Source: Magnetococcales bacterium | Lineage (GTDB): Bacteria > Pseudomonadota > Magnetococcia > Magnetococcales > Magnetaquicoccaceae | Length of the DNA: 38,366 bases | Reading direction: 5' to 3' | NCBI GenBank assembly: GCA_015231915.1 | Contig: JADGAR010000036.1 | Location: 1-38,366, forward strand | Shown: piece by piece, positions 13,438-37,612 of the stretch | Layout of the letters: the number at the start of each line of letters is the position of its first letter | How positions within the stretch are numbered: the stretch's first letter is position 1 | Program-made: the position numbers and the translations under genes | The notes under the pieces: model-generated | The model's database searches: none | Told to the model about the DNA's origin: nothing | The model's input: the letters and a program-made list of their open reading frames with translations, nothing else

Positions 13438-13662
13438 TTGAGTAAACCCCTTCTCTCAATCATTTTGTCTATTTTACTGCTGATCTTCGCCACGCAGAAC
13501 ATGAACATGGTCAGCATTCGATTCGTGGTCGGCCCGCCCATTGAAATGCCCCTGATTCTGGTGATATCGGGGGCATTCATTGGCGGTTTCGTGTTGGCGA
13601 CCATCAATCACCTGAGACGCAACGCTTTCGGAAGCCGCCGCAAGAGGAAAGAAGGCCCATGA
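13438..13662 (+). CDS. mamL: Magnetosome membrane protein MamL
   Basis: A 74-residue protein with two transmembrane helices (about 4-20 and 36-56) and a strongly basic C-terminal tail (HLRRNAFGSRRKRK). MamL is needed for vesicle formation and resembles LapA-domain proteins. The start is a TTG at 13438 behind GGAGGGG; no ATG fits. It overlaps mamM by four bases, as expected for the mamL-mamM pair. Confidence 0.85.
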   Translation: MSKPLLSIILSILLLIFATQNMNMVSIRFVVGPPIEMPLILVISGAFIGGFVLATINHLRRNAFGSRRKRKEGP

Positions 13663-15943: not shown

Positions 15944-15950
15944 GGCCGTC

Positions 15951-18598: not shown

Positions 18599-18622
18599 CA
18601 AGGGAGTTGAGGATTGAAACCA

Positions 18623-19282: not shown

Positions 19283-19298
19283 CACGGATTGAGCCAGC

Positions 19299-20153
19299 AT
19301 GCCGGAAAAGCGCGATCCCACGGATGAGATGGACGACCGCCTGGAGTTGACCAGCAGCGAACGCATGCAACGCATGAAAAAGCTGATGCGCCAACTTTAC
19401 GAGGAGGAAGAGGCTACCCATGTCGTCAAGATACCGCCCATCAAGGCCAGATCACTGATTCTGGTCCTCAGCATCACTGCGGTCGCGTTTTTGGTCGTGA
19501 CCACGTTTTACAATTTTAATCGCTTCATTGCGGCGGAAGAGCAGGTACTGTCCTCCCGCGGGCACATCCACGACGCTCTGCAACGCCGGTCGAACCTGTT
19601 TGGCAATCTGGTCAATCTGACCCTCAATCACGCCATGCTGGAGCAGGAGGTATTTCGTTATGTCTCGGATGGTCGTCTGGGCATGATGGGACAAAACGCC
19701 CCAGGCGCGTCAACCCAGGCAGGCAATCCGGGCCAAACGGCGCCAGCGGGCGTCTCGCCTGTCGAGACCCTGGCCCGTCTGTTTGGTCTGGCGGAACAGT
19801 ATCCTGACATCAAAACTTCCACTACCTATCAGCAACTCATGGACAAGCTGGTGGATATCGAAAATCTCATCTCGCAGCGCCGGGATGAATACAATACCGA
19901 AGTCAGGAACTACAATACCCTGATCACCTCATTTCCCTGGTCGGTCATGGCTAAGATATTGAAGTTTCAACGCTATCAATATTTCTCTGCATCGCCTGGG
20001 CCGGACAACATGAACATGGATCTTGATTCCAGAAAGTTTATGCGGCTGATCCCGGAACCGGAGCTGAACAATAATCGGCGCAAGGATGCGGTAAAGTCTC
20101 AAAGCAATGCTGCCCCGCACAATGAAATTTCCGGCGAGGAGACCAAGCCATGA
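19299..20153 (+). CDS. mamQ: Magnetosome protein MamQ (LemA-like)
   Basis: A 284-residue LemA-family protein required for magnetosome membrane formation. A charged cytoplasmic N-terminus (about 1-45) precedes one transmembrane helix (about 50-70). The helical domain has RRSNLFGNLVNLTLNHAMLE and ISQRRDEYNTEVRNYNTLI near residue 190-205, which is the LemA signature. A Gly/Ala/Thr linker (about 125-150) interrupts it. The last four bases overlap mamB directly, so there is no mamR between mamQ and mamB. Confidence 0.92.
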   Translation: MPEKRDPTDEMDDRLELTSSERMQRMKKLMRQLYEEEEATHVVKIPPIKARSLILVLSITAVAFLVVTTFYNFNRFIAAEEQVLSSRGHIHDALQRRSNLFGNLVNLTLNHAMLEQEVFRYVSDGRLGMMGQNAPGASTQAGNPGQTAPAGVSPVETLARLFGLAEQYPDIKTSTTYQQLMDKLVDIENLISQRRDEYNTEVRNYNTLITSFPWSVMAKILKFQRYQYFSASPGPDNMNMDLDSRKFMRLIPEPELNNNRRKDAVKSQSNAAPHNEISGEETKP

Positions 20154-21046
20154 GATACCCTCACTGCATCCAGTGCCGCGCCGAGGTGACCTGGTACTCG
20201 ATCTGGTTCAACGTGTTCATGGTGACCTACAAGGTGATCATGTCCATCACCACCAACTGCGCCGCGTTGATGGCCGACGCCTTCCACTCCCTGGCCGACC
20301 TGCTGGCCAGCATCTTCACCCTCATCAGCCTGCGGATTTCCAACCGTCCGCCGGACGAGGAGTATGCTTATGGCTACGGCAAGATCCAGCACATCTCCTC
20401 CGGCATCGTCGGGCTGATCCTGGCGGTGGGGTCGATTTTCATCATCGTCGAGGCGCTGGTCAACATCATCAACCACACTTATGCCGCGCCGGATCGCATC
20501 TCCTTGCTGGGCGCGATCGTCTCCACGGTGGGCAACGAGTTGATGTTCCACTATCAGCGTTGCGTCGCGGTGGAAAACAACAGCCCGGCCATCATGGCCA
20601 ACGCCTGGGACAACCGTTCCGACGCCTTTTCGTCCCTGGGAATGGTGGTGGGACTCTTTTTCGCCACGGTGCTCGATTTTCCCATCGCCGATCCGATCTC
20701 GGCCATCCTGATTTCGATGCTGGTGATCAAGATCGGGATCGAGTTGATCATGGAGGCGGTCAACAACCTGATGGACGCATCCCCCGACAAGGAGGAGCTG
20801 GAGGGAATCTACCAGACCATCCGCACCTTCCCCAGGGTGAAGGAAGTCAACTACCTGCGCGCCAGGAGCCTGGGGGACACCCTCTATGTCGAGGCCGACA
20901 TCCGCGTGGACCGCAATCTCAAGGTGTTCGAAGGAGACCTGATCCTGGCGGCTCTGACCGAAAAGATCAAACATTCCGCCGAAAACATCGGCAGCATTCG
21001 CATTTTTCTCACCCCGGCGCTGGATGGCCGGAAAGGAGGACCATGA
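20150..21046 (+). CDS. mamB: Magnetosome cation diffusion facilitator MamB
   Basis: A 298-residue CDF protein, essential for vesicle biogenesis and iron import. Metal-site residues are H46 and D50 in helix 2 (DAFHSLAD) and D154 and D158 in helix 5 (WDNRSDAF). The C-terminal domain has VKEVNYLRARSLGDTLYVEA. The CXXC-containing N-terminus (PHCIQCRAEV) matches MamB. It starts within the end of mamQ and ends overlapping mamS. Confidence 0.95.
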   Translation: MRYPHCIQCRAEVTWYSIWFNVFMVTYKVIMSITTNCAALMADAFHSLADLLASIFTLISLRISNRPPDEEYAYGYGKIQHISSGIVGLILAVGSIFIIVEALVNIINHTYAAPDRISLLGAIVSTVGNELMFHYQRCVAVENNSPAIMANAWDNRSDAFSSLGMVVGLFFATVLDFPIADPISAILISMLVIKIGIELIMEAVNNLMDASPDKEELEGIYQTIRTFPRVKEVNYLRARSLGDTLYVEADIRVDRNLKVFEGDLILAALTEKIKHSAENIGSIRIFLTPALDGRKGGP

Positions 21047-21621
21047 AAAACAGTTCCCTGCACGCCGGCGAATGGATCGTGGCCGGCGGCGTTCTGCTCC
21101 TGCTGGTGGGCATTCTCGTCGCGCTGTTTGCCGATGTGGGGAATGGCGGCAAAGCACCACCACCCAACCCCGATCCCGCGCTCCCGGCGCGCGTCGCAGG
21201 GGCGCCGCCCGTGGACAACGCCGGGGACGGAGTGCGCATGATCCCGGTCGCGGCCACGCGCATGCCGGACGCCGGAGGAACGACCGCCCTGGTGCAACTG
21301 ACGCAGGCCCCGCGCCTGACGTTCGGCGGCAAGATCCACCAGATCAGCGAGCAGCCTCAAACCGATGGGCAACTGCACATCTGGCTGCAAGACCCCAAAC
21401 AAGGGGAACTTCGGGTGTCGGTGGGGCCGGGCTGGTTTTTGAAGTATCTCGGTTGCCTGTTGCGTCATGACGCGCAACTGGATGGCACCGGTTTCCACTA
21501 CGACGGCCAGGGCGGCACGGGTCCCGCGCTGGTCTACGCCAAACGGATCCGTATCGATGGCAAGGATTGCCAACTGCGCAACGACGAGGGTTTCGCGCTC
21601 TGGTCCAACAAACTGCAATAG
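21043..21621 (+). CDS. mamS: Magnetosome protein MamS
   Basis: A 192-residue protein with one N-terminal membrane anchor (about 11-30), a Pro-rich linker and a beta-rich C-terminal domain (about 85-190) in which GQLHIWLQDPKQGELRVSVGP and WFLKYLGCLL are recognisable from the MamS family, related to a domain of MamE/MamX-type proteins. It affects crystal size and shape. A strong AAAGGAGG site precedes the ATG at 21043. mamT follows after six bases. Confidence 0.88.
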   Translation: MKNSSLHAGEWIVAGGVLLLLVGILVALFADVGNGGKAPPPNPDPALPARVAGAPPVDNAGDGVRMIPVAATRMPDAGGTTALVQLTQAPRLTFGGKIHQISEQPQTDGQLHIWLQDPKQGELRVSVGPGWFLKYLGCLLRHDAQLDGTGFHYDGQGGTGPALVYAKRIRIDGKDCQLRNDEGFALWSNKLQ

Positions 21622-21627
21622 GACGGC

Positions 21628-22110
21628 ATGAACACGAGCACCTTCAAGACCGGTTTGATGATTCTGGCGGTGATCGGCCTCGTAGGGTTCATCGGTTACG
21701 GGGTGCTCGGCATGCGTGGCGAACCGACGCCGGAGATGCGCGGCGAGGTGTTCGGCGCCATGCCCAAGCCAACCCAGCCATCGCTCCGCGAGCCGCTCCT
21801 GGAACTGGTCGCCCCCGCAGCGCCGGGCTTGCGGCGCATGCTGATCAAACGGATTCCCTCCATCGATCCGGGCGCACGCATGCCGCACCCGTCATGGGGA
21901 CCTTGCACCAATTGTCATTTGATGCGCGGCGGCCTGCCCCCCGGCAGCCAGCCGGCGACCCCTGTGGCGAAGGTTTGGGAGCAGATCTCCGTATACTACA
22001 AGGTGGGACCGCCGATTCTGCCCAATTCCCCCCGGCCCCATCCCCCTTCCGGACGCTGCATCAAATGTCATGACATCCTGGTGTATGTCAAAAATCAATC
22101 GAATCCTTGA
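21628..22110 (+). CDS. mamT: Magnetochrome protein MamT
   Basis: A 160-residue membrane-anchored (about 8-28) c-type cytochrome with two magnetochrome motifs, CTNCH (93-97) and CIKCH (144-148), each preceded by the MPHPSWGP or RPHPPSGR context. MamT works with MamE, MamP and MamX in electron transfer controlling crystal maturation. It closes the recognised mam gene set. Confidence 0.92.
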   Translation: MNTSTFKTGLMILAVIGLVGFIGYGVLGMRGEPTPEMRGEVFGAMPKPTQPSLREPLLELVAPAAPGLRRMLIKRIPSIDPGARMPHPSWGPCTNCHLMRGGLPPGSQPATPVAKVWEQISVYYKVGPPILPNSPRPHPPSGRCIKCHDILVYVKNQSNP

Positions 22111-23573: not shown

Positions 23574-23584
23574 GCCTGGGCGCC

Positions 23585-26500
23585 ATGTCTGCTCCGTCCG
23601 GACAGAACAGAAACGCGCCCGTGGTGCTGGTCATCGACGATGATGCGTCCATCCTGGCCACTTTCAAACGTTATCTCGAACGTTTGAACTATACCGTCCT
23701 GGTGGCACAAGACGGTTATGCGGGTCTGGAACTGTTCGCGCAGGAAGATCCTGATCTGGTCATTACCGATCTCTATATGCCGGAACTCGATGGGTTTGAG
23801 GTTCTTGCAAAAATCAAAAACGCATCGTTTTTGACTCCGGTGATCATCATGTCGGGAAAGGGGGAGGTCGATGATGTCATCAAGGCCCTGCATTATGGAG
23901 CAAGCGATTATTTGCAAAGACCGTTGGACAGTTTGGATACGCTCAAACAGGCTGTCGAAAAGGCATTGAAAGGTAACGAATCGGCAAGATCCGAGGAAAA
24001 ACATCGATTTGCTTTGAGTCTTTTTGAAAACAACATTTCGTCGATCATCGTAAGCGATCGGCATGGACGCATCGTCGAATTCAATCCGGCTGCGGAGGCC
24101 TTGTTCGGTTACGTGCGCCACGAGGTCATTGGCCGTGACATCAGTACCCTGATCATCCCGTTGCATCTGCGCAAGGCCCACAGGCAGGCCATGCAACGGC
24201 TGGTCACACAGGCGGAACCGGTTCGGATCAAACGCCATTTGAGAACCATGGGCTTGCATGCCAATGGGGACCACATCGATATAGAAGTTCTTTTAATAAA
24301 TTTATATATATACGAAAAACCCTATTTTATCGCCAACATCAGCGACATCACGACATCGAAACAATTCGCCAAGGCGCTTGGGGATACGCTCACGGTGGCG
24401 GAAACCTATCATCAGAAAAAATTGCAGACGATCGAAAAGATTTCCGCCTCGGAAGAAGCCGTGACCATGGCGTTTCAATCGCAGATCATCATCAGCTCCG
24501 TGCTGCAACTCGCGCTGCTGCCCGGAGAAATGGAAGATCTGTTGCAACAGGCGCTCGAATTGATCGTCAGCCTGCCTTGGCTGACCTTCTGCGCAGGCAT
24601 ACACCTGTGCGTGCCCGGCCTGGATGGCAAAAAAATCGATATTTATTCGAAAATCAATCCGGAAACGCTGCATGATATGATGGGATGTGACCTTCCCCCC
24701 AATTCCCCCTGCCTTTGTTCCATGCCATTCCCATCCGATGCCGGGTCGCAGGACAAAAAGTTGACCCAGGCGCAATTTTATTGCATTGAAATCAACCTGA
24801 ATGGCCAACCGATCGGGGTGGTCCGATTCGTTCTCACCGATGCCGTCAATTTGAAAGAAAATGTGTTCGTGCTGTATCTTGGCATGTTCGCCCAGTCTCT
24901 GGATTACCTGATCGGACGCATCCATCTCGATCATGCCTTGCAGCAGACCAAGGAGAAGGCGGAGTTCGCCAACCGGGCCAAGAGCGAATTCCTGGCCAAC
25001 ATGAGCCACGAGATCCGCAGCCCCCTGAATTCGATCATCGGCCTGACCGATCTGATCATCACCACCTCCATGTCGGGCGAGGAGATCGTCGAGCACTTGA
25101 AGACCGTGCATGCTTCCTCTCTGGTCCTGCTCGACCTGATCAACGGCATCCTCGATCTGGCCAAGATCGAAGCGGGTCATTTCGTGCTGGACGACACCTC
25201 CTTCGACCTGATCGGTCAGGTGGAAAACGCTTGCAAGCTGTTGGCCAACAAGGCGCAACAAAAAGGGGTGGAACTGTACTGCCGGATCGCCCCGGAACTG
25301 CCCACCACCCTGCGCGGAGACCCGGTGCGCTTGAAGCAGATTCTGATCAATCTGATCAACAATGCCATCAAGTTCACCGCCGAGGGGGAAGTGGTGGTGC
25401 GGGTGGAGCCTGCGCAGTCCACCGGCCAGGGGGATCGCATCGGCGTGCGCTTCGCCGTCTCCGACACCGGCATCGGCATTCCCAAAGAGCAGCAGGAGCG
25501 GATTTTCGAGAGTTTCACCCAGGCGGACGGTTCCACCTCGCGCAAATACGGGGGGACCGGCCTGGGACTGACCATCTCCCGGCATCTGGTGGAAATGATG
25601 GGTGGAAAACTGCAAGTGACAAGCGAACCGGACAAGGGGACGGTATTCGCTTTTTCTCTCGCCTTTGTCACCGCCGGGTCGGAAGAGAATGCAGAGATCG
25701 CATCGCTGCTCGACTTGCGGCGCAATACCCGCCAGGCGCCGCAATCGTCTTTTTCGGGCAGGCTTGCTTTGCTGCTGGACACCCATCCGACAGGATTGGC
25801 AATTGTTGCGGAATTGCTGCAATTTTTTGGCTGTCAGGTCACGACCGCCACCGACATCGCCCCCCTGCGCGCAGTGCTGGCGGGGGAGGATACGACCAGG
25901 TACGATTTTCTGGTCATCGATGAGATGGTCCTGCGTGACGCCATCCCTTTGACCTGCAGCCTGACACTGCCCGCCATCGTCATGATCTCCCAGCCGGATG
26001 GACGCAATGAGAGGGTCAACCTGGACATTTTCCAGACGGCGCAACTCATTCGTAAACCGGTACAACGGTTTCAACTGCTCAAAAAAATCGAGCAGGTCAT
26101 CCAGGCGCCGTCCGCCTGGCCGGTCGCCGAAGCCATTGACGAAACCACAACGTGGCCAGCCGTGGAACCGTTGCGGATTCTGCTGGTGGAAGACCTGCCG
26201 GCCAATCAACTCCTGGCCGTTTCCATCCTGAAACAGCAAAAACATGTCATCACCATCGCCAACCATGGCGCCGAGGCCCTGAAGATCTTGCGCGAGACCC
26301 GCTTCGACCTGATCCTGATGGACCTGCAAATGCCGGTGCTGGACGGCTTCGAGACCACACGCCGCATCCGCTCCGGCACTCCGGAAGAGGTCGGCGACCC
26401 GCGCATTCCCATCATCGCGGTCACGGCCATGGTCATGATGCGCGAACGGGAGAAATGTCTCGACCTGGGGATGAACGGCTATCTGTTGAAACCCTATCTG

Positions 26501-26890
26501 GCCAAACAGTTGATCGCCGTGATCGCGCCCTTCACCCGGAAGAAGAGCGAAAAACGCGGCGCGGGAGTGGTCCTGAAACCGGTGCCCATCGATGCCGGAT
26601 CCCTGGCAACACTCAAGCAGGCGTTCGCCAGGGAGGCTGGAGGGCACATGCAAAGCCTGCTGGGGGGAGTGAAGCAGTGCGATCCCCTCCCGGTTCGGCA
26701 GGCGCTGGGTTGGATGAAAAGAATCGCCGCGCAAATCGGCGCGAGTCGCGTCGAATCCCAATGCATCCGTCTGACGGGCCAGTTGGAAATGGAGGCCTGG
26801 GAAGACGCCACGGTGATTGCCATGAATCTGCAACGCCAGGTTGACGATCTCGTCAACCTTTTCAATTCCGAGGAGAGTTCCCCCCCATGA
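23585..26890 (+). CDS. Multi-domain hybrid histidine kinase
   Basis: A 1101-residue soluble kinase with no transmembrane segment. Domains in order: receiver 1 (about 12-125, acceptor D62 in [11 protein letters not shown]); PAS (about 142-255); a GAF-like segment (about 290-445); HisKA (H475 in [11 protein letters not shown]); HATPase (N box [12 protein letters not shown] at about 585-595, then DTGIGIP and GTGLGL); a divergent receiver (about 722-838, possible acceptor D779 and Lys in RKPV); receiver 3 (about 862-985, D913 in [11 protein letters not shown]); and a C-terminal HPt-like bundle (about 1000-1095) in which the usual HTLKG histidine is Gly ([13 protein letters not shown]). It overlaps the following receiver gene by four bases, so both are made together. 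Probably the input kinase of the phosphorelay. Confidence 0.9.
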
Positions 26891-27303
26891 AAATTCTGAT
26901 CGCGGATGACGAATTGAACAATCGGAAGATGCTCAGGGCCTATTTGAAGTCGTTCGGCCAATGCGACATGGTGAGCGACGGCAAGGAGGCGCTGGAGTTG
27001 TTCATCTCCGACCTGGAAGATGGGGATCCTTATGATTTGGTACTGCTCGACATTATCATGCCCAACATGGACGGACAGAAGACCCTGAGCAAGATGCGCG
27101 CTGCCGAAAAACGCATCGCGCCCGATGCCAGGCCAACCCCGATCATGATGATTACCGGCATGGACTCTTCCGTGCAGGCCATGCAGGCCTATTTCAAGGG
27201 CGGCTGCACCGACTATCTGACCAAGCCGGTGACCCGCGAACTCCTGCTGGAAAAGCTGCGCAAGCTGAATCTGATCACCGACGAGGAAAGCGAGGGGGAA
27301 TGA
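26887..27303 (+). CDS. Single-domain CheY-like response regulator (first)
   Basis: A 138-residue stand-alone receiver. The acidic pair is at D7/D8 (IADDEL), the acceptor is D55 (LLDIIMP), the switch Thr is T90 and the lysine is K113 (YLTKPVT). There is no output domain. It overlaps the kinase gene by four bases and precedes the PilZ/STAS gene by one base. It is a paralogue of the receiver at 37196-37612, with shared [12 protein letters not shown]-type sequence, so the operon is bracketed by two related receivers. Likely carries phosphate from the kinase to a protein target such as the motor. Confidence 0.93.
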
Positions 27304-27304: not shown

Positions 27305-28255
27305 ATGGCCACTAACGCCCCGAACCGCAGACAGCGCGAACGCGTCTTCTGCGGCCAACCCATGGAGTTCAGCGGTTGTCTCGGCAATGCCCTGGACCTG
27401 AATGAAATTGCCGTGTTTCTGGTATTGGCCGCGCCCTGCGCCGTATCCGTCGGCACGGTCGGGGTGTTGAAGTTTCAATTCGAAGGCCGCTCCGTGGAAG
27501 AGAAGGCCTCTGTGGCCCGTATCACGAAAATGGGGATTTCGGTCGTCTCGCTGGAAGAAAACAGTCAGTTGCCGCACCTGATGACCATGTCCCGATCCGG
27601 CATCAAGTTCTGTTCCCAATTGGCCCATGAGACCGTCGTCCATTTCCGAGGGGAGTTCAGCGCCGAGATTGTTAAAGATTTTAATAATATTTACCGGCAT
27701 CACCCTCCAGGACGCAAATACCGATTCAATTTCCAGAACGTCACCAGCGTGACGCCTTCCGGTCTGGCCATGCTCCTGCAATTGGAGTCCAGCAATCGCG
27801 GCACGAAGGAGGATCTGGAGATCATTCAGTGCAACAAGGACGTCATGCGTACCCTGATGACGCTGGATGCGCCCGGCGTCAACATCACCATCCTGCCGCA
27901 AACCGCTGAACTCGATCAGGACCACACATTCACGGTCACCACAGCCATGGGACCGGATGGCCGGGAGATCGTGACCATCAGGATCGCGCGGATCTTCGAT
28001 TACAACTGCCGCAACGAATTCGCTTCTCTCTACCGGGGCAGGCCAAAACGGACGCAATACATTCTGGATTTCCAGGCAACCGTCCACGTCGGCAAAGCCG
28101 CCTTCGGCACCATGCTGTTGCTCAATCAATACAGCCGCGACCATGGCGGCGGTGCGATCCGGATCATCAACTGCGCCAGTAACGTCAAAAGGGCTTTCGA
28201 GTCCATGAAATTCGACCGGTTTTTCGAAATCGATACGAGCGGAGGGACGCCATGA
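27305..28255 (+). CDS. PilZ-like plus double STAS domain protein
   Basis: A 316-residue protein. The N-terminus has RQRER (an RxxxR pattern) and, near residue 70-80, ARITKMGISVVSLEE, together suggesting a PilZ c-di-GMP binding domain, though its second motif is weak. Two STAS-like domains follow (about 108-198 and 213-312), each with a strand-helix pattern ending in an IIxC turn (DLEIIQCNKDVMRTL and IRIINCASNVKRAF). The usual phosphorylatable Ser is not obvious: the segments read TPSGLAMLLQL and GKAAFGTMLLL, so the first keeps a Ser-Gly and the second has Ala-Phe. It overlaps the next gene by four bases. Probably a docking or partner-switch component. Confidence 0.7.
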   Translation: MATNAPNRRQRERVFCGQPMEFSGCLGNALDLNEIAVFLVLAAPCAVSVGTVGVLKFQFEGRSVEEKASVARITKMGISVVSLEENSQLPHLMTMSRSGIKFCSQLAHETVVHFRGEFSAEIVKDFNNIYRHHPPGRKYRFNFQNVTSVTPSGLAMLLQLESSNRGTKEDLEIIQCNKDVMRTLMTLDAPGVNITILPQTAELDQDHTFTVTTAMGPDGREIVTIRIARIFDYNCRNEFASLYRGRPKRTQYILDFQATVHVGKAAFGTMLLLNQYSRDHGGGAIRIINCASNVKRAFESMKFDRFFEIDTSGGTP

Positions 28256-30147
28256 CCGAACCACCCAATATGCCATTGGAGATGTTCGTGCACGAGTCCG
28301 GGAAACGTCTCACGGTCGCCTTGGATGGAACGCGTCGGCTCGACGCGGGGTGGCGGGAAGAGACGCTGCAAACGATGCGTGGCATCCGGGGCACGGCGGA
28401 GTTGTCGAACCTGCCCCACATCAGCCAGTTGAGCGCGGCGATGGAGACCCTGCTGTTCCGGATGCAGTCGATGTCCGTCACCCCGGACGAGGCGTGCCTG
28501 GAGGTGCTGAACTCCGGCCTGACCGGGCTGCAAGAGATGTTCGACGATCCCGCCCTGGGCGCGCTCATGCCCATCGATGGGACCTTGTCCGCCATTGCGG
28601 CCACCGTGGAACGGATCACTCCGCCCGCGCCGATTTTGGACAACCTGCACCGGTATCCCCAGGCGGTGGCCAGGGCGGTGTCTCAGGGGTTGAATTTTTT
28701 TCTCATTGATCTCCCCTTGTCAGGAGATGCCGCAGCCAGACGAGCGACACTCTCGGCATTGCTGAACAACCTGCTGGTCATCGGCGAACTGATCGACGCC
28801 GATCCCCCCCTGGAGGCGGATCAGACCGTGGGCCGCCATTTCACCGCAGACCGCGCCCGATTGCTGTTGGCCACCGTGCTGCAAAAAGAGCTGCTGCTGG
28901 GCTTGACCACCCTGTCAGAGGAGCGGATTCGGGATGTCCCGATCCCGGAGGATTTGAAAACCGCCGTGCTGGAGGAGGCACAAAACGATTTGCTCGAAGC
29001 GGCCCGTCTTGGCGAGGCGGAAGAACGGATGCGGCAGGAGCATTTCGAGCGCATGGAGCAGGAACGTCTGGCCAGGGAAGCGGAAGCCAGGGAAATGGCC
29101 GCCCAGGAAGCGGAAGCCAGGGAAAGGGCCGCCCAGGAAGCGGAGGCCAGGGAAAAAGCCGCCAGAGAAGAAGAAGCCAGAGAAAAGGCCGCTCGGGACG
29201 CCAGGGAAAAGGCCGCCCAGGACGCCAGGGAAAAGGCCGCCCAGGACGCCAGGGAAAAGGCCGCCAGAGAGGCGGAAGCCAAGGAAAGGGCCGCGCGGGA
29301 GGAAAAGTCGCGCGCGGCGGACAAGAAGCGGCATCGCATGATGATCCTTTCCGGGACGCTTGCTGCGGGCATTGCCGTTGCTCTCTATGTCCTGACGGAA
29401 CCGAAAAACCCGCCACCTCTCTCCTCCGTCGGCAACAAACAGCAAACAACCGCCAGCGCCGCGCCGACGCCGCCAACGCCCCTGCCCCAAGTCGCACCGG
29501 TGACACCCCCGCCAGCGCCAGTCGCATCCGAACCGAAACCACCGGAACCCAAACCGGAATCACCCCCCATGGCGAGCCCTGCGCCGCAACCGGAACCGCC
29601 ACCTGTGGTGGCACCCCCGGCACCGGAACCAATACCGGAAATCGGCAATCAGCCCGAACCGGTACGTGTCGTGGTGGAAAACGCGCCGGTCACATCCTCC
29701 CCGCTGGCCCCGTTCGCCGATCTGCTCAAACCCATGAAACGCCTGAAAGGCACTCCCTATGAGCGCATCGTACCGCCCAAAGGCAGGACGACCCGCGGCG
29801 ATATGCTTTTTTACCGCACCCCGGATGGCCATATCATCTTTTCCATCGTGACCTTGCTGGATCACACCGCAATCCGCGCCGACGACTCGTTCACCATCTC
29901 CGCCCATAACCTCGCGGAACTCCGACTGGTGTTCCAGGTAAATCCCAACGAGGCCTATCTGTTCGAATTCAACACCGTTGGCCGCGTCGTCGTGCCCACT
30001 GCCTTCTGGGATCCCTTTGCCCGGATCAGCCAGAAAGCGGTAAGCATTAGCAGAGTTATGAAAACAGAACAAGGCGTGTTTCATCTGCGTGATCTTGCCG
30101 CGTACAAGATCAACAACATATTGAAGATATTAGAAAAAACGAAATGA
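28252..30147 (+). CDS. Membrane protein with His-less HPt-like head and TolA-like coil
   Basis: A 631-residue single-pass protein. Residues about 32-100 resemble a CheA-type HPt bundle, but the phosphorylatable His is Arg (R43; TMRGIRGTAEL replaces the HTLKG pattern). A helical domain (100-230) is followed by a highly charged Ala/Glu/Arg/Lys coil (about 235-360) made of EAEAREKAA and DAREKAAQ repeats. One transmembrane helix (about 363-383) leads into a Pro-rich stretch (about 386-480) and a folded C-terminal domain (about 500-631) presumably outside the inner membrane. The order resembles a TonB/TolA-like force-transmitting protein turned around, with a cytoplasmic coil. Its place just before the ZorA-type gene suggests it contacts the motor or the cell wall. 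No family is recognised as a whole. Confidence 0.7.
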   Translation: MTEPPNMPLEMFVHESGKRLTVALDGTRRLDAGWREETLQTMRGIRGTAELSNLPHISQLSAAMETLLFRMQSMSVTPDEACLEVLNSGLTGLQEMFDDPALGALMPIDGTLSAIAATVERITPPAPILDNLHRYPQAVARAVSQGLNFFLIDLPLSGDAAARRATLSALLNNLLVIGELIDADPPLEADQTVGRHFTADRARLLLATVLQKELLLGLTTLSEERIRDVPIPEDLKTAVLEEAQNDLLEAARLGEAEERMRQEHFERMEQERLAREAEAREMAAQEAEARERAAQEAEAREKAAREEEAREKAARDAREKAAQDAREKAAQDAREKAAREAEAKERAAREEKSRAADKKRHRMMILSGTLAAGIAVALYVLTEPKNPPPLSSVGNKQQTTASAAPTPPTPLPQVAPVTPPPAPVASEPKPPEPKPESPPMASPAPQPEPPPVVAPPAPEPIPEIGNQPEPVRVVVENAPVTSSPLAPFADLLKPMKRLKGTPYERIVPPKGRTTRGDMLFYRTPDGHIIFSIVTLLDHTAIRADDSFTISAHNLAELRLVFQVNPNEAYLFEFNTVGRVVVPTAFWDPFARISQKAVSISRVMKTEQGVFHLRDLAAYKINNILKILEKTK

Positions 30148-30154
30148 GGTCATG

Positions 30155-30976
30155 ATGAACCGGCTCAACCTGAAATTTGTGCGCAGGCTGCATGTGGCGT
30201 GGATTGCCGAACTGGAACAACGGATCCGCCAAGGCGAGCCATTGCCCCACATTCACGCCTTGCAGGAATGTGAGTTGACGATCTGGCTCCAAGGGGAAGG
30301 GCCGCAAGAACTGCATCATTTCGACTCGGTGCGGGCGTTGATGAATGCGCACGAACAACTGCATCAGGTGGTCAACCGCATCCCGGCTTACCTGGACAGC
30401 CGCGCCAGGGAGGAAGTCGCCACCACCCTGTGGCAGGTGCATACCTTGAGCCGTGATATTGTTTATTTTCTCACGGAACTGGAGTTCGTCGTCTTCGAGG
30501 AGCACGGGCTTGGCCAAGTGGTCGCGCATCCGATCCGGTCGTTGGTACACAAATGGTTTCATGTCGCCGATCGGGAAGGTGGTTCCGAACACGACCCCCT
30601 GGGAATCAATCATGCGCGCCTGATGCATCTGCGCTGGTCCCGGGACCTGGTGCGCGCCTTCAACCACTGGGGCCGGAACGCCGAGATCGAATCGGGTGTC
30701 TCATGCGACCTGGGGAACTGGATCCATGGCGTCGGTCGGCAACTGGATCGGGGGCTGGTGGCCGAACTGGACAAGGTCCATCGACTGTTGCACGCCAAGG
30801 CCGAAGAGACCATTCGCGCCCTGAGAAGAAAGAACATTCGGGTGTCGGACAAACTGTATCAGGAGGTGGTCGATCTCGGTCGCGAGGTATTGTATCTGCT
30901 GACCCGCATCGAAACCCTCCTGCCACAATCGGCAACCGCCGCAACAAGGCCCCTCGAAGGAGACGCCATTGACTGA
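30155..30976 (+). CDS. Tandem CZB (chemoreceptor zinc-binding) protein
   Basis: A 273-residue soluble protein with two CZB-type zinc sites. Site 1: H13, C39 (ECELTIW), H66 and H70 (HEQLH). Site 2: H158, C184 (SCDLGNW), H209 and H213 (HRLLH). The H-C-H-xxx-H order and the C-x-L-x-x-W signature match the CZB family, usually found at the end of chemoreceptors or diguanylate cyclases, where it senses zinc or hypochlorite. Here there is no receptor or cyclase attached. I use ATG 30155 because GAGG is closer to the right distance; ATG 30152 would add one Met. Its end overlaps the ZorA-type gene. Confidence 0.85.
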   Translation: MNRLNLKFVRRLHVAWIAELEQRIRQGEPLPHIHALQECELTIWLQGEGPQELHHFDSVRALMNAHEQLHQVVNRIPAYLDSRAREEVATTLWQVHTLSRDIVYFLTELEFVVFEEHGLGQVVAHPIRSLVHKWFHVADREGGSEHDPLGINHARLMHLRWSRDLVRAFNHWGRNAEIESGVSCDLGNWIHGVGRQLDRGLVAELDKVHRLLHAKAEETIRALRRKNIRVSDKLYQEVVDLGREVLYLLTRIETLLPQSATAATRPLEGDAID

Positions 30977-33900
30977 ACTCGCCACCTTTTTTGCCGGACG
31001 AGGCGGACACTACACCCTTGCCTTTCTGGTCATCAGCGGATTTTTGATCAGCATCGTCATGTTCTACTGGCAGACGCACCGGATCACCCTGCAAGTGCGA
31101 CGCGGCCTGCGCCTGCTGCATGACATCGGCAAACTCTCCTCTTCGGATCCGGTCGGGCGCAAAATGGTCTTCTCTCAGCATTGGAACCGGTTCCGCGAGG
31201 TGATGGAATCCGGGGAGATGGACCTGTTCGCATCGAGCTGGTACGAGTTCAAAAAACACCTGATCCTGCCGACCGCCGATGCGCCACGACCGATCCGCAC
31301 CACGGTGGAACCAACGCTTTATTTCAACGAACGCGGCATCTATTTTCTCAATATCAACTCACGTCTCTACGATGCGGTGCCGGGCTTTTTGACCGGCGGC
31401 GGCATTTTCGGCACCTTCGTCGGCCTGGTCGCCGGCATCTCCCTGGCCCAAAGCGGCATGACCGCCGGCCCCCAGGAGATGCGGCAGGCCATGCAGTTCC
31501 TCATGGGGGGCGTCTCCACCGCGTTCATCACCTCCGTCTTCGGCATCGGGTTTTCCATCGTCTTTTCCGTCCAGGAAAAACGCCGGCAATACGCGATCGG
31601 ACGCATGATCAACCAGTTCAGCGAAGAACTGGAACTCTGCCTGGAGATGGCCACGCCGGAAAACACCGCATTGTCGAAACTGCATGTCGCGCAAATGGAA
31701 CAGATCGCCGAACTGCAAAAGATCGGACAACTGCTGAAAACGGCGCAAGGGATGCCATCCGCCGGCTCGACGGCCCCACGCGAGTTGGAAACCCGCATTG
31801 GTGCCGGCCTCGCCCCGGCCATGGGCAAGATGTTCGAAACCCTGGTCAAATACCAGGACAACCAGAAAAGCGCCCAGAAGGATGCACTGCGCGATGCCCT
31901 CGCCCCGGTTCTGGACCGGCTGCAAGAGACCCTCACCCAGAAGATGAGCGGCATGGAACTGGCCATCCATGCCCTTGTCGAACATCTGCGCAAGGGGCAG
32001 GAGGCTCCCGAAACGGGAACGCACGACCTGCAAAACAGGATGGACGCCCTGAGCGCCAACCTCGCCACCCTGCTGCGCGGCTCCAGCGAGGGGGCGGCGG
32101 AACGCCTCGACCGGGCGATCAACACCGTCGTCGATGTCATGCGCGACCTGCAGGCCCAGCAGAAGGCGCAGCACGAAGAGGCCCTGCGTCATCACGCGCA
32201 ACTGCAAACCACCTCCCGTGAGACGGTCGATCACACCCTCGACCGTTTCGCATCCTCCCTCGACACCCGCATGGACCAACAGGGCGCCCAGTTGACCACA
32301 ACCCTGCGCGACATCGCCGACGCCCTGCGGCTGTTCCAGCCCCGTGCGGAAACAACGGACGGCGAGCGCCAGGAGTTCCTCCTCCCGTTGAGTCGCGCCA
32401 TGAACGATCTGGCCGAGGTGATGATCGGCATGCGCGCCGCCCAGAACGACCTGGCCGCCCAACTGCGCGACTCCTCAGCAGGACTGGCGGGCCGCTCGGA
32501 ACGCTCCCTGGTGGAGATGGCAGGCATGGTCAAAACCCTGCAGACCGCCATCTCGGAAATGTCCAACCAGATGCGGGACTCCTCCGCTGGGCTGGCGGGC
32601 CGCTCGGAGCGCATCATGGGCGAACTGGCCGGCGCGGTGCGCAACATGCAGTCCGTCTTCCAGGAGATGACCACCCAGTTGCACGACTCCTCCAACGGCC
32701 TGGTGGGCCGCTCGGAACACTCCATGAGCGAAATGACCCGGGTGGCCATGAACATGCAGACCGCCCTCCAGGAGATGGCTGCCCTGGTGCGCGACTCCTC
32801 GATGGGGATCAGCGGTCGCCAGGAACGCGCTCTGGCCGACCTGGCCGCCGTGGCGTCGGGCATGCGCAACGCCCAGACGGAACTGGCCGCGCTCCTGCGT
32901 GACTCTTCGGCGGGATTTGCCGGCAGCCTGGCCCGCACCATCACGGACCTGACCTCTGTTGCCGACAGCATGAAAACCGCCCAGGGCGAGATGGTCAGCC
33001 TGCTGCGGGAATCGTCGGTCGGCTTCAGTGAGCGCCTGAACCGCACCATCACCGATCTTTCCCAGACCTCCACCACCATGATGGCCGTGCAACAGGAGAT
33101 GCAGCGTTTTTTCAGCTCCGCGCCCCACCTGTTGATGGCCACCGAGAAACTCCTGCAGGGGATGGAACGGTTCCAGGGCAGCATCGGCGACAGGATGGCC
33201 GCGCTGGATCAAACGCGCGTGTCAACGCAAGGGATCGAAACCGGTCAGGAGGAGATGATCCGCTCCCTCGGCCAGTTCATGGCCCAGTCCCGCGAATCCA
33301 TGCAACAGGATTCGCTCCAGTTGAACGAGGCCATGGTCAAGGCGGGCCGTTTGTTCCTCGGGGCCACGGAAAAGCTCGAGGCAACCATGACCAATCTCTC
33401 CTCGCTGTTCGCCAACTCCCTGAACCAGTTCTCCCGAGGCGCCACGGAAGTGACCGCCGGGATGCATCACGCCAACGACCAACTCTTTGCCCGCATCGGC
33501 GACTCGCTGCTCTCCCTCAACCTGGCCGTGGATGGGATCCGTTCGTCCCAGGAGGAGATGCGTGACCACTTCCTGGCGAGCACCAGCGAGGTGACCACCG
33601 GGGTGAATCAGGCCAACGAACTGCTCGTTTCCCGCATCGGCGACGTGCTGCGCGCCATCAACCTGGCGGTGGAAGGAATCCGCTCGACCCGGGAAGAGAT
33701 GCGATCCGTCCAGGTCATCCCGCCCCCGGAAACCCGCATGCCCTCCCAGGGAGAAGAGATGCAAAACCGCTTCGAGATGTTGATCGGCGCCTTGTCCAAC
33801 CTCTTCGAACGGATGGAGGCCAACACGAACTCCACCATGCATACCATTCAGGCGCAGCATCACGCATCCGCCAGCTATTTCCAGCAATCGCAGCAACATA

Positions 33901-34979
33901 TGACAGAAGGCAACATGGAACTGCAAGAAGTGCTCCAGGCCAGTGGCCTCTCCTTCCGGCAATCCGCTGCGGAAATGGGCCAGGCCGCTGCCCATATGGC
34001 CCACGCCCTCCAGACCTCCATCCGCTGGTCGGAGGAGAATCGTCAGGCCATGGATGCCGTGATCCAGTTCTCCAACAGCTTCGGACAGGCGCAGAACCGC
34101 TTCGCGCAGATGATCCAGGCCCTGGAATCGGGCGCCATGATGATCGCCGTGGCCGGAGAAAGACTGCAAGGCAGCACCGACAAGATGGAGTCCGTTGCGC
34201 GGGAACTCTCCGCCACCCAGGAGACCGCCCGACAGACCCTCAACGCCATCCTCAAGGCCCACGAACAATTGCGGGTCATCTGGCACAACTACGAAAGCCG
34301 CTTCACCCAGGTGGACACCTCGCTGGAACAGACCTTCAATCACCTCAACGACGGCCTTCAGGAGTTCGCGAACCGGGTGCTGCGCTTCATCGCCGGCGTG
34401 GACGACCAGATGGGGGGCATCACGGAAAAACTCGGCTACGTGATCGGCGACTTCGGCTCCAAACTGGAAGACCTCAACGACACCATGAGCGGATTTCTGG
34501 ACAAGATGTCCGGCACCATCATTCAACCCATGCATGACGCCTCCGGGCAGATCCTCCAGGCCGGCGAGAAGATCCACGGCTCCCTTTCCAGCCTGTCGGG
34601 ACTGGCATCCACCCTCTCCCTGGCGCATGGGGAGGCCAGAGACGAATCGGCCCAGACCCTGTCCAATATCACCGAAACCCACGAACGCATGAAAACCACG
34701 ATCAGCCTGATGCAAAGGCAGATGGATGCCACCCTGAACGAACATCAGCAGCGCCTCGAACAGGTGAACGTTTCGATGCAACAGACCATGGCTCATATCA
34801 ACAGCGATCTTTCCGAATTCTCCTCGGAAAAGATCCTCGAATTCATCGGGGGCGTAGATGAACACATGGAAAGCGTATCCATCCAGTTGCGCGACACGAT
34901 CAGTGATTTAAATGGCAAACTCGACGAACTGAACAACATGATGGTGTTCGTGGTTCAGACCCAGTCCAATCAAGAGTGA
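30969..34979 (+). CDS. ZorA-type MotA/ExbB channel subunit with very long tail
   Basis: A 1336-residue protein, TTG start at 30969 behind GAAGGAGA. Three membrane segments: about 15-35, 136-160 (VPGFLTGGGIFGTFVGL) and 177-202 (FLMGGVSTAFITSVFGIGF). The LTGxGIxGTFxGL pattern is that of ZorA, the stator-like subunit of the Zorya anti-phage motor. From about 205 to 1330 the protein is a continuous helical, coiled-coil tail in the cytoplasm. It contains six 36-residue repeats (from residue 500) of the form RDSSAGLAGRSERSLVEMAG, two 47-residue repeats (about 827-920) and a C-terminal duplication of about 70 residues. Known ZorA proteins are roughly half as long. The next gene encodes a matching ZorB-type partner. 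Confidence 0.85.
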   Translation: MTELATFFAGRGGHYTLAFLVISGFLISIVMFYWQTHRITLQVRRGLRLLHDIGKLSSSDPVGRKMVFSQHWNRFREVMESGEMDLFASSWYEFKKHLILPTADAPRPIRTTVEPTLYFNERGIYFLNINSRLYDAVPGFLTGGGIFGTFVGLVAGISLAQSGMTAGPQEMRQAMQFLMGGVSTAFITSVFGIGFSIVFSVQEKRRQYAIGRMINQFSEELELCLEMATPENTALSKLHVAQMEQIAELQKIGQLLKTAQGMPSAGSTAPRELETRIGAGLAPAMGKMFETLVKYQDNQKSAQKDALRDALAPVLDRLQETLTQKMSGMELAIHALVEHLRKGQEAPETGTHDLQNRMDALSANLATLLRGSSEGAAERLDRAINTVVDVMRDLQAQQKAQHEEALRHHAQLQTTSRETVDHTLDRFASSLDTRMDQQGAQLTTTLRDIADALRLFQPRAETTDGERQEFLLPLSRAMNDLAEVMIGMRAAQNDLAAQLRDSSAGLAGRSERSLVEMAGMVKTLQTAISEMSNQMRDSSAGLAGRSERIMGELAGAVRNMQSVFQEMTTQLHDSSNGLVGRSEHSMSEMTRVAMNMQTALQEMAALVRDSSMGISGRQERALADLAAVASGMRNAQTELAALLRDSSAGFAGSLARTITDLTSVADSMKTAQGEMVSLLRESSVGFSERLNRTITDLSQTSTTMMAVQQEMQRFFSSAPHLLMATEKLLQGMERFQGSIGDRMAALDQTRVSTQGIETGQEEMIRSLGQFMAQSRESMQQDSLQLNEAMVKAGRLFLGATEKLEATMTNLSSLFANSLNQFSRGATEVTAGMHHANDQLFARIGDSLLSLNLAVDGIRSSQEEMRDHFLASTSEVTTGVNQANELLVSRIGDVLRAINLAVEGIRSTREEMRSVQVIPPPETRMPSQGEEMQNRFEMLIGALSNLFERMEANTNSTMHTIQAQHHASASYFQQSQQHMTEGNMELQEVLQASGLSFRQSAAEMGQAAAHMAHALQTSIRWSEENRQAMDAVIQFSNSFGQAQNRFAQMIQALESGAMMIAVAGERLQGSTDKMESVARELSATQETARQTLNAILKAHEQLRVIWHNYESRFTQVDTSLEQTFNHLNDGLQEFANRVLRFIAGVDDQMGGITEKLGYVIGDFGSKLEDLNDTMSGFLDKMSGTIIQPMHDASGQILQAGEKIHGSLSSLSGLASTLSLAHGEARDESAQTLSNITETHERMKTTISLMQRQMDATLNEHQQRLEQVNVSMQQTMAHINSDLSEFSSEKILEFIGGVDEHMESVSIQLRDTISDLNGKLDELNNMMVFVVQTQSNQE
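32466..33113 (+). repeat. Six tandem 108-base repeats in the ZorA-type tail
   Basis: The first units begin at 32466 and 32574, exactly 108 bases apart, and the pattern RDSSxGxxxR recurs every 36 codons to about 33113, with divergence growing along the series. Each unit is helical, so the repeats set the tail length. Confidence 0.8.
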
Positions 34980-34992: not shown

Positions 34993-35937
34993 ATGGCGCA
35001 ACGCATCCGGGAAACCAGAACACCGCAATATGTCGCCTTGGATTACTCCATTTCCATCAGCGATGTGATGTCGGCCCTGCTGTTCGTGTTCATCGTGATC
35101 CTGATCATGTTCTCCTTCAACATGAGCACCTCCGAAAGCGATTTCCGCGAGGAGTACCAGCAGGCCGCCAAGGAGCGGGAGCGACTCGAGGAGATCAACG
35201 CCGAGAAGGAGGAAAAGCTGAAAAAACTGAAAACCAGTGTTGCCGAACTGCGCGAACTGGCTTCCAACCTCAAGCACGACTTCGACCTGCAACAGGCCAG
35301 GACCGCGCAACTGCTGTATCAACTGCTCACAGACATCCAACAGGAATTGATCAGCAAGGAAAATCTGCGCGTCCATATCGACCCCAACCTCGGCATTCTG
35401 CGCCTGCCGAACGAGATTCTCTTTCCCCTGGGATCCGCCCAGTTCGCGCCGGGCGGCGAGGAGATCCTGGAGAAACTGGCCCGCGTTCTGGAGCACCACC
35501 TGCCCTGCTATACCGGCAAGGTGGATGAGGCCAGCCGGCCCTCCTTCTGTTTGGACCGACAATGGAATCCGGGCACGCTGGACGCGGTGTTCATCGAGGG
35601 ACATACCGACAACATGCCCCTGGTCAATGCCAAAAGCTTCAGCAACAATCTGCATCTTTCCGGGATGCGGGCCATCCGGACGTATGAAACCCTCATGGCC
35701 GCTTCCATCCAGGCCCCCCTCATGGAACTGCGCAACCGGAAGGGTCAGACGGTGTTCGGCATCAGCGGCTATGGGGAATACCGCCCGGTGGTGGGGCATG
35801 CCACCCCGACCCCGGAACCGGCGAACCGCCGGATCGATGTTCGCTTTTTTCTGGTCAATCCGAAACCACCCGAGGCCATTCCCCAGGTGTTCGAGGGGTT
35901 GGATCGCCTGACCGAAAAACTCGGTGAACTGAAATGA
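34993..35937 (+). CDS. ZorB-type MotB/OmpA subunit
   Basis: A 314-residue protein with one transmembrane helix (about 22-42) that contains the ion-carrying Asp, D24 (ISISDVMSALLFVFI), in the place used by ZorB and MotB. A periplasmic coiled coil (about 48-100) leads to an OmpA-like peptidoglycan-binding domain (about 125-295) with LFPLGSAQFAPGGEEIL, FIEGHTDNMP (D206) and the final NRRIDVRF. Together with the ZorA-type protein it would form a 5:2 rotary motor driven by proton or sodium flow and anchored to the cell wall. It starts 13 bases after the ZorA-type gene and overlaps the next gene by four. Confidence 0.9.
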   Translation: MAQRIRETRTPQYVALDYSISISDVMSALLFVFIVILIMFSFNMSTSESDFREEYQQAAKERERLEEINAEKEEKLKKLKTSVAELRELASNLKHDFDLQQARTAQLLYQLLTDIQQELISKENLRVHIDPNLGILRLPNEILFPLGSAQFAPGGEEILEKLARVLEHHLPCYTGKVDEASRPSFCLDRQWNPGTLDAVFIEGHTDNMPLVNAKSFSNNLHLSGMRAIRTYETLMAASIQAPLMELRNRKGQTVFGISGYGEYRPVVGHATPTPEPANRRIDVRFFLVNPKPPEAIPQVFEGLDRLTEKLGELK

Positions 35938-37199
35938 GCCTCAAGGTCAGTCTGGCGCATCATCTGTATGCCTTCTCCCTCCCGCCGCATTTGACGGTGG
36001 AGTGGAAAACGGCGCGCGCCGCAGAAGAGATCGATCGCCTTTTCGCCACGCTTTCTCACGCCAGACCCCTCGAACGCCTGACACGGGAACAACACCGCGA
36101 GATGGTCATGGATCATTTCCGCCAGCATCGCTCCCTGGCGGGATTGTCGGCTCGCGTTCTGAAGCAGGTGCCCTGGTTCCTGTTCGATGCGGAGGCCGAC
36201 GGGTCACGGCTCACGGATGATCCCGCATTTCGCCAGGCATGGCGCGCCTGGTTTGCCGGTCATGCCACCACCGGCACCCTGATTGCCCTGCTGCACAATC
36301 TCTTGCTGTACGCCCCCGCACAGGAACACATGGAGTTCTGGAAGGAAGATCTGCAGCGGCTGCTGGCACAAGGCAACCATCCGCAACTGGCCGCATGGAA
36401 GGAACGTTGCGAACGGTTTCATCTGTTGGAACCCGAAGGTCCCATGGCATTCGCCAACGCCCTTTATCGCGGAGAGACGACCTTGCATGCGCTTTGTCAG
36501 CAGGCCGGCCTGCAAGGGGATTTGGCCACCGGGGGATTCGTGCGCCGCGGGTTGACGCATTTGCTGGAACGGATGGGCCGCTATGCCGAGAAGGATGGTT
36601 TGCGACACGAAGAACTGAAAAACCTGTTGCACGGACTGCGGGATCAACAGGGCCGCTTTCGCACGCTGGTCAGCGGCTTTGCCACCCGGTTGGCGGAGGT
36701 CCTGCTGCGCCCGTTTCAGAACCAGGAGGCGGAAACCCAACTGCGCAATCTGGTGCGGAATTTTCTGCTCGGCTATCTTGGCGACCCCCGCACCCACCCT
36801 GCGGCCTGGCAGGCTGTGGACCCCGCTGCACGCGCGGTCATCCTGGCCTGGCTGGCAGGCAGGCCGAAACAGGTCGATGACAAACTCAGGCTCTTCATCC
36901 AGGAAGCGAACAAGCAGTTGGCCGAATTGGAAACCGACCTGTACCAGATTCAAAACCAGGGTCCGACCACCCCGGACCCGGTCCTGCAGCGTGCCATGCA
37001 ACGTCTGCACGGCATCGTCGGAGTCGCGGAATTTTTCAATCTGATCGATGTGATCGAACTCAGCCATGCCATGGAGACCACCCTTGGTGGCCTGCGCGTC
37101 AAGACCCTCCCCTGGTCCGTCGCGTTGGCCGCGCGGCTCATCCAGGAGCATGGTGAATTACGCGAACAATTTAATTTATTGCATGGAGAGAACAAATGA
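35934..37199 (+). CDS. Possible ZorC-like protein with C-terminal HPt domain
   Basis: A 421-residue soluble protein. The first about 315 residues are helical and lie exactly where zorC sits in Zorya loci. A stretch with YAPAQEHMEFWKEDL (about 124-138) and helical WFxxH-rich context could be an EH-signature core like ZorC, but I cannot confirm this by eye. Residues about 320-415 form a CheA-type HPt domain: FIQEANKQLAELETDLYQI opens it, followed by H359 in RLHGIVGVAEF and SHAMETTLGGL. Unlike the two other HPt-like domains in the operon this one keeps the histidine. I infer a motor-associated protein that can be phosphorylated. Overlaps the next receiver gene by four bases. Confidence 0.65.
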   Translation: MSLKVSLAHHLYAFSLPPHLTVEWKTARAAEEIDRLFATLSHARPLERLTREQHREMVMDHFRQHRSLAGLSARVLKQVPWFLFDAEADGSRLTDDPAFRQAWRAWFAGHATTGTLIALLHNLLLYAPAQEHMEFWKEDLQRLLAQGNHPQLAAWKERCERFHLLEPEGPMAFANALYRGETTLHALCQQAGLQGDLATGGFVRRGLTHLLERMGRYAEKDGLRHEELKNLLHGLRDQQGRFRTLVSGFATRLAEVLLRPFQNQEAETQLRNLVRNFLLGYLGDPRTHPAAWQAVDPAARAVILAWLAGRPKQVDDKLRLFIQEANKQLAELETDLYQIQNQGPTTPDPVLQRAMQRLHGIVGVAEFFNLIDVIELSHAMETTLGGLRVKTLPWSVALAARLIQEHGELREQFNLLHGENK

Positions 37200-37612
37200 A
37201 AATTTTAATCGTTGACGATCAATTGCAAGGCAGACAGTTGTTGAGCGCCTTACTGCGCCCCTTTGGCCACTGTGATCAGGCAGCGGACGGCAGGGAGGCG
37301 GTTTTTCTCGTGGAAAGCGCCCTCGCCTCGAAAGCGCCTTATGATTTGATTTTATTGGATATCATGATGCCAGAAATGAACGGGCAAGCGGCATTGCACG
37401 CGATACGGGCCGCAGAACGTGACCATGGCCTGGCAGGCGTCAAGGAAGCGGTCATCTTCATGGTGACAGGCGTCAGTTCGGCGCCTGCCGTCATTGAAGC
37501 CTTTTTCAAGGGCTACTGCACGGATTATTTGACCAAGCCGATCACCCGGCAAATATTGCTCGACAAACTACAAGAATATCATTTGATTGACAAGAAGGCG
37601 GAATCACCATGA
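37196..37612 (+). CDS. Single-domain CheY-like response regulator (second)
   Basis: A 138-residue stand-alone receiver with D7/D8, acceptor D55 (LLDIMMPEMNG), T91 and K114 (YLTKPIT). It is paralogous to the receiver at 26887-27303 over the full length, including [16 protein letters not shown]. It overlaps the HPt-bearing gene by four bases, so H359 of that protein and D55 here are the obvious phosphotransfer pair. It is the last gene of the operon; about 95 bases and a separate promoter follow. Confidence 0.93.
   Translation: MKILIVDDQLQGRQLLSALLRPFGHCDQAADGREAVFLVESALASKAPYDLILLDIMMPEMNGQAALHAIRAAERDHGLAGVKEAVIFMVTGVSSAPAVIEAFFKGYCTDYLTKPITRQILLDKLQEYHLIDKKAESP

What the first reader, a model, noticed from the sequence alone, without database searches (positions are those of the whole stretch)
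35934..37612. HPt fused to a motor-associated protein, paired with its own receiver
The protein after ZorB ends in a CheA-type HPt domain with H359 intact, and a receiver gene overlaps its stop. The two other HPt-like domains of the operon (in the kinase and in the 28252-30147 protein) have lost the histidine. That leaves this one as the only clear acceptor, suggesting phosphate reaches the motor through it.
Basis: partly seen in the sequence, partly recalled or inferred. Interest (0 to 1): 0.72.

Follow-up and report, generated by a model that had tools for sequence, protein, structure and literature searches.

The report
Magnetosome-cluster Zorya motor with HPt adaptor
In magnetic-field-sensing cocci, the gene cluster that builds the magnetosome also carries a proton-motor gene trio related to the Zorya anti-phage system, in which the third protein's signature domain has been swapped for a domain derived from chemotaxis CheA, suggesting that a former defence motor is now steered by cell signalling.

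Summary
The 35934-37199 protein ends in a CheA-P1-type HPt domain (Pfam 32.2 bits, cut-off 24.6; predicted fold matches CheA P1 structure 1tqg, TM 0.90). H359 sits at the phospho-histidine position, and an intact CheY-like receiver gene overlaps its stop. The other two HPt-like domains lack the histidine.

H359 is not conserved: in 15 full-length family members it is H in 5, N in 7, R in 2, Q in 1 (at least four changes on the tree), although kinase and/or receiver 1 persist. The surrounding face stays (H+4 Gly 14/15, H+6 Ala 15/15). The domain looks like a receiver-docking, often pseudo-HPt, module that may still pass phosphate in this lineage.

The larger finding is the setting. The window is a Magnetococcales magnetosome gene cluster; a Zorya-type ZorA-ZorB-ZorC trio lies beside mam genes in 13 of the 16 genomes that have it. 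It has no ZorD and an overlong ZorA tail, and the HPt replaces exactly the C-terminal third of ZorC that holds the EH signature. All 16 genomes also carry the cluster's STAS/pseudo-CheA module (2 of 32 others do). The genes were noted in 2019 but not recognised as Zorya or HPt. Function is untested.

The parts
35934..36860 (+). ZorC-like N-terminal part (residues 1-309) of the ZorC-HPt protein
   Evidence: PADLOC ZorC1 PDLC00622 E 7.4e-47 over profile 10-310/462; Pfam EH_Signature 84-267/423
36873..37184 (+). CheA-P1-type HPt domain (residues 314-417) in place of the EH-signature C-terminal third
   Evidence: Pfam Hpt 32.2 bits; AF2 four helices; Foldseek 1tqg TMt 0.90; hhalign to CheA P1 E 9.7e-26
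37008..37010 (+). codon of H359, the CheA His48 equivalent; variable in homologues (H5 N7 R2 Q1)
37196..37612 (+). RR2, stand-alone CheY-like receiver overlapping the zorC-HPt stop (ATGA); Asp and Lys intact
   Evidence: Pfam Response_reg E 9.3e-16; alignment; junction
34993..35937 (+). ZorB1-like MotB homologue, Asp24 and OmpA-type peptidoglycan-binding motif conserved
   Evidence: PADLOC ZorB1 E 1.1e-67; alignment
30969..34979 (+). ZorA1-like MotA homologue, 1336 aa with very long coiled-coil tail (108-bp repeats at 32464-32800)
   Evidence: PADLOC ZorA1 E 6.6e-45; lengths; repeats
30152..30976 (+). tandem CZB (chemoreceptor zinc-binding) protein
   Evidence: Pfam CZB two stretches, E 1.7e-16
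28252..30147 (+). pseudo-CheA: P1+P2-like N-terminus of CheA without kinase, P1 His replaced by Arg (19/19 homologues), coiled coil, probable TM helix
   Evidence: hhalign to CheA E 1.6e-48; alignment
27305..28255 (+). double STAS protein
   Evidence: Pfam STAS_2 / STAS weak, below cut-off; orthologues in 18/48 genomes
26887..27303 (+). RR1, stand-alone CheY-like receiver, 64-94% identical orthologues in the related clusters
   Evidence: Pfam E 1.9e-20
23582..26890 (+). hybrid histidine kinase REC-PAS-HisKA-HATPase-REC(degenerate)-REC-HPt-like (His lost); start inferred from homologue
   Evidence: Pfam; alignment
6251..22110 (+). magnetosome genes: mamH, E, K, M, N, O, A, B by NCBIfam; mamP, Q, S, T by reading and position
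   Evidence: NCBIfam MamH, E, K, M, N, O, A, B (MamE and MamO just under their curated cut-offs)

Best explanation
The protein is a ZorC whose C-terminal third, which carries the EH signature, was replaced by the P1 (HPt) domain of a CheA of the same lineage. With ZorA and ZorB it forms a proton-driven, peptidoglycan-anchored motor of the MotAB/Zorya type that has left phage defence (no ZorD, EH signature lost) and been recruited into the magnetosome gene cluster. There it is coupled to the cluster's own signalling module (hybrid kinase, receiver RR1, STAS protein, pseudo-CheA, CZB protein). The HPt end of ZorC most likely works as a docking site for phosphorylated CheY-like receivers (RR1 generally, RR2 here), reporting redox or oxygen state to the motor. 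In the window's lineage H359 may in addition accept or drain phosphate; in most relatives it cannot. Shown here: anatomy, domain swap, loss of the histidine, location and co-occurrence. Inferred: receiver docking, motor control, and a role in magnetosome handling or magneto-aerotaxis.
For: Domain swap: 12 ordinary ZorC of the class match the EH profile to 383-422 of 423, while the HPt-type ones stop at 265-267 and at 308-310/462 of PDLC00622; the C-terminal EAW...ADWSxNG blocks of ordinary ZorC are missing. CheA origin of the HPt: hhalign E 9.7e-26, CheA motif HSIKGSAG intact in 15/15 CheA. Docking rather than transfer: H359 varies, H+4 Gly 14/15 and H+6 Ala 15/15 stay; a small H+4 residue serves the HPt-receiver active-site contact (PMC6341664); a pseudo-HPt lacking the His that competes for partners is known in Arabidopsis, AHP6 (PMC6963811). 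Kinase and receiver residues intact. Linkage: all 16 genomes with this zorC have the STAS/pseudo-CheA module, 2 of 32 others do (Fisher p 6.8e-11, not corrected for kinship). Cluster: mam genes beside the trio in 13 of 16 genomes, next to none of 12 ordinary Zorya loci. No ZorD: 0 tblastn hits in the cluster loci. Sensory hint: RR2-like receiver fused to hemerythrin in relatives.
Against: No experiment. H359 with H378 and E381 is retained in the window and its sister, and H in three further lineages, so true phosphotransfer may persist there. H+4 Gly and H+6 Ala could be kept for packing alone; in Ypd1, H+4 substitutions hurt transfer more than binding, so a kept H+4 Gly is not clean evidence for docking. 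RR2 sits beside zorC in two genomes only. In 13 of the 15 other genomes the signalling genes are not next to zorABC. In three genomes (G031, G004, G029) no mam gene is seen on the stretch with the trio. Co-occurrence is not corrected for kinship.
Confidence: 0.5

Rival explanations
1. One reading: H359 is a working phosphoacceptor and phosphate passes kinase to receiver to H359 (or from RR2 back), so phosphorylation of ZorC itself controls the motor.
For: H359, H378 and E381 match CheA H48, H67, E70 in the window and its 83% relative; intact kinase and receivers; zorC-rr2 overlap. The three loci with receiver/STAS genes next to zorABC (window, G001, G023) all keep H, while 2 of the 12 others with a full C-terminus do; window and G001 are sisters, so this is a lead only.
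Against: H lost in 10 of 15 orthologues, at least four changes, in genomes that keep kinase and RR1; Lys of HxxKG is Val here.
Confidence: 0.25
2. It is an anti-phage Zorya variant that happens to sit in a genomic island; the HPt end recruits an effector encoded elsewhere.
For: ZorA1, ZorB1, ZorC1 profiles match strongly; Asp24 and peptidoglycan-binding motif kept; phage-like genes (by reading) at the window's left edge.
Against: No ZorD in any cluster locus; EH signature lost; complete ZorABCD systems exist separately in the same order, several in the same genomes; linkage to the magnetosome signalling module in 16/16; no such fusion among the sampled Pseudomonadota outside the order, in plasmids or in viral contigs.
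Confidence: 0.15
3. The HPt domain is a structural remnant or generic helical cap with no signalling role, drifting since capture.
For: HPt is less conserved than the ZorC part (mean identity 0.40 against 0.48); the histidine is lost repeatedly.
Against: The domain is present in all 15 full-length members, with invariant positions 321, 324, 325, 365, 370, 409 and near-invariant H+4 Gly.
Confidence: 0.1

Closest known systems
Zorya type I anti-phage system (ZorABCD)
   Same: ZorA MotA-like with cytoplasmic tail, ZorB MotB-like with Asp24 and peptidoglycan-binding domain, ZorC N-terminal two thirds, gene order A-B-C
   Different: No ZorD; ZorC lacks the EH-signature C-terminal third and carries an HPt; ZorA 1154-1610 aa against 670-793 in seven ordinary loci; in magnetosome clusters; linked to a signalling module
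CheA P1 domain / HPt (PF01627)
   Same: Sequence, fold and position of H359, H378, E381; homologous to the CheA P1 of the lineage
   Different: Fused to ZorC; His variable across orthologues; Val instead of Lys at H+3
Pseudo-HPt AHP6 of Arabidopsis (PMC6963811)
   Same: HPt fold without phosphoacceptor, able to compete for kinases and receivers
   Different: Plant, free-standing, shown to inhibit a phosphorelay; here only a likeness in design
Three unnamed genes in the UR-1, WMHbinv6 and WMHbin3 magnetosome islands (Koziaeva 2019, PMC6783814)
   Same: EH signature, MotB and apolipoprotein genes between mamD-like and feoA1, with chemotaxis-like genes downstream of mamT; WMHbin3 is the window's 83% relative
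   Different: Not recognised there as ZorABC; no HPt, no domain swap and no linkage test reported

Membership tests
Zorya type I | ZorA MotA/ExbB/TolQ protein with long cytoplasmic tail | tested here: met
   PADLOC ZorA1 E 6.6e-45, 1336 aa
Zorya type I | ZorB with membrane Asp (D24) and peptidoglycan-binding domain | tested here: met
   Asp24 in all 15 homologues, EGHTDN and NRRID motifs conserved; PADLOC E 1.1e-67
Zorya type I | ZorC with complete EH-signature domain | tested here: not met
   Match ends at 267/423 and 310/462; C-terminal conserved blocks absent
Zorya type I | ZorD helicase | tested here: not met
   0 tblastn hits in window and 15 cluster loci; hits in 11 of 12 ordinary loci, the twelfth cut by its contig end
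Zorya type I | Anti-phage activity | not testable with these tools
   no experiment
HPt / CheA P1 | Sequence over the curated cut-off | tested here: met
   32.2 bits against 24.6
HPt / CheA P1 | Four-helix bundle fold | tested here: met
HPt / CheA P1 | Phosphoacceptor His in this protein | tested here: met
   H359 aligned with CheA His
HPt / CheA P1 | Phosphoacceptor His conserved in orthologues | tested here: not met
   H in 5 of 15
HPt / CheA P1 | H359 exposed on the surface | tested here: inconclusive
   only by likeness to 1tqg; exposure not computed
HPt / CheA P1 | Phosphotransfer activity | not testable with these tools
   no experiment
Magnetosome gene cluster component | Physical linkage to mam genes, conserved across genomes | tested here: met
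   mam genes beside the trio in 13 of 16 genomes
Magnetosome gene cluster component | Role in magnetosome formation or magnetotaxis | not testable with these tools
   no experiment

The most novel reading that the evidence does not exclude
A Zorya-type rotary proton motor has been taken out of phage defence and made part of the magnetosome organelle system. It is anchored in the cell wall, reaches far into the cell with a tail that could exceed 150 nm if fully helical, and is switched by redox or oxygen signals through a CheA-derived docking domain, so that magnetosome position or magnetic torque is actively handled or sensed.
Probability: 0.3. Interest if true: 0.88.

Novelty: new variant of a known kind. 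Interest (0 to 1): 0.7.

Why it matters
Zorya motors are known as anti-phage machines. A form without ZorD and without the EH signature, fixed in magnetosome clusters and always found with a signalling module, would be a case of a defence motor turned to organelle or taxis work. [quoted passage not shown] The CheA-P1 swap gives a concrete handle: which receiver binds it, and does the motor respond.

Tried and rejected
An alternative register with Q356 as the phospho-His position was considered and dropped: phmmer and hhalign both set H359 on the CheA His. A link between H359 and the presence of RR2 was considered and dropped: RR2-like receivers also occur in G011/G015, whose ZorC has Asn. Searches for the fusion in plasmids, viral contigs and 398 Pseudomonadota genomes found none outside Magnetococcales; other phyla were not sampled. 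The genome-contig scan gave only two close relatives. The Nature paper on the Zorya mechanism is not held. The AF2 model rests on three sequences only (the tool admits few); its ZorC part is low in confidence and was not interpreted.

Full report
What was checked. The C-terminal domain passes Pfam's Hpt cut-off. H359 aligns with the phospho-His of CheA in two ways, and the predicted fold is a CheA-P1 four-helix bundle (three-sequence alignment, so only the HPt part is trusted). The receiver and the kinase keep their catalytic residues. The claims that the kinase and the 28252-30147 protein have lost the HPt histidine are right. For the latter, Arg stands at the His position in all 19 homologues examined, and its first 240 residues are the P1 and P2-like part of CheA (hhalign E 1.6e-48). 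The kinase's HPt-like end is variable (H in 3 of 17).

The histidine. Full-length homologues were found in the order Magnetococcales only (none in the plasmid collection, viral contigs, or the other sampled Pseudomonadota). In 15 members with a complete C-terminus the position of H359 reads H 5, N 7, R 2, Q 1. On a tree of ZorB plus the ZorC N-terminal part, which leaves the HPt columns out, H against not-H needs at least four changes; the count cannot tell gain from loss, but CheA P1 and the deepest row both have H, so repeated loss is the simpler reading. Around it the helix is kept: R357 13/15, I361 14/15, G363 (H+4) 14/15, V364 14/15, A365 15/15. A small H+4 residue is known to matter for the HPt-receiver active-site fit (PMC6341664). 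In the same genomes the hybrid kinase keeps its HisKA His and last receiver Asp (17/17) and receiver RR1 is 64-94% identical to the window's (G023 has RR1 but no kinase at the locus).

The domain swap. Twelve ordinary ZorC of the class match the EH_Signature profile to 383-422 of 423; the HPt-type proteins all stop at 265-267. Against PDLC00622 the HPt-type ones stop at 308-310 of 462, while well-matched ordinary ZorC run to 449-459. The lost part holds the blocks EAW and ADWSxNG shared by ordinary ZorC, which I take to be the E and H of the signature (inference from the alignment). ZorD was found in 11 of 12 ordinary loci, the twelfth being cut by its contig end; the cluster loci have none. 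ZorA of the cluster type is 1154-1610 aa against 670-793 in seven ordinary loci.

The setting. NCBIfam identifies MamH, E, K, M, N, O, A and B in the window. The trio lies beside mam genes in 13 of 16 genomes; in G031, G004 and G029 no mam gene is seen on the fetched stretch, and there the contig is short or zorC lies near its end in G004 and G029. Nearly all Magnetococcia genomes have MamK (46 of 48), so the trio is an add-on of a subset. The STAS protein and the pseudo-CheA occur in all 16 genomes with the trio and in 2 of 32 without; one of these two is 57% complete. Fisher p is 6.8e-11 overall and 1.3e-6 in high-quality genomes, without correction for kinship; one genome of family f13 (G029) has both while its relatives lack both. 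The signalling genes keep the order mamB-mamS-mamT-coiled coil-o188-kinase-RR1-STAS-pseudo-CheA-CZB in most clusters. In the window and G001 they run straight into zorABC; G023 has a shorter version.

Mechanism. Shown: anatomy and linkage. Inferred: ZorAB is a working proton motor (D24 and peptidoglycan motif kept; the same residue, the ZorB periplasmic part and the ZorA tail were tested in Zorya defence by others, PMC11890865). RR1 docks on the HPt end of ZorC and tunes the motor. The sensed cue may be redox or oxygen: PAS in the kinase, a CZB protein, and a receiver-hemerythrin fusion in three relatives (confirmed by Pfam in one; the other two by sequence). What the motor does for magnetosomes is unknown; placement, anchoring or torque sensing are guesses.

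What is known. Koziaeva et al. 2019 (PMC6783814) reported the three genes in UR-1, WMHbinv6 and WMHbin3 as EH signature, MotB and apolipoprotein proteins of unknown function, and chemotaxis-like genes downstream of mamT. No held paper joins magnetosome and Zorya. The Zorya identity, the HPt, the domain swap and the module linkage are, to the extent of this library, not described.

Noticed in passing
28252-30147: Pseudo-CheA: P1 and P2-like part of CheA without kinase, P1 His replaced by Arg in all 19 homologues, with coiled coil and a probable TM helix.
   Followed up: partly
L102:6157-7074, L104:6182-7099, L105:11111-12028: RR2-like receiver fused to a hemerythrin domain in the magnetosome clusters of three relatives (Pfam confirmed on L102), a possible oxygen sensor.
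   Followed up: partly
30152-30976: Protein made of tandem CZB (chemoreceptor zinc-binding) domains with no chemoreceptor attached; orthologues in the related clusters.
   Followed up: no
22117-22974 and 23007-23573: Two conserved genes between mamT and the kinase; the first a coiled coil with a weak MCP-signal likeness (E 0.0027, below cut-off), the second without any Pfam match.
   Followed up: partly
L052-L063: Ordinary Zorya systems occur elsewhere in the order, several in the same genomes as the magnetosome-cluster trio.
   Followed up: partly
939-2926: By reading, phage tail-like proteins at the left edge of the window; phage-related genes near the magnetosome island were also reported for UR-1.
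   Followed up: no
37700-38365: feoA and the start of feoB (by reading) follow the receiver gene.
   Followed up: no
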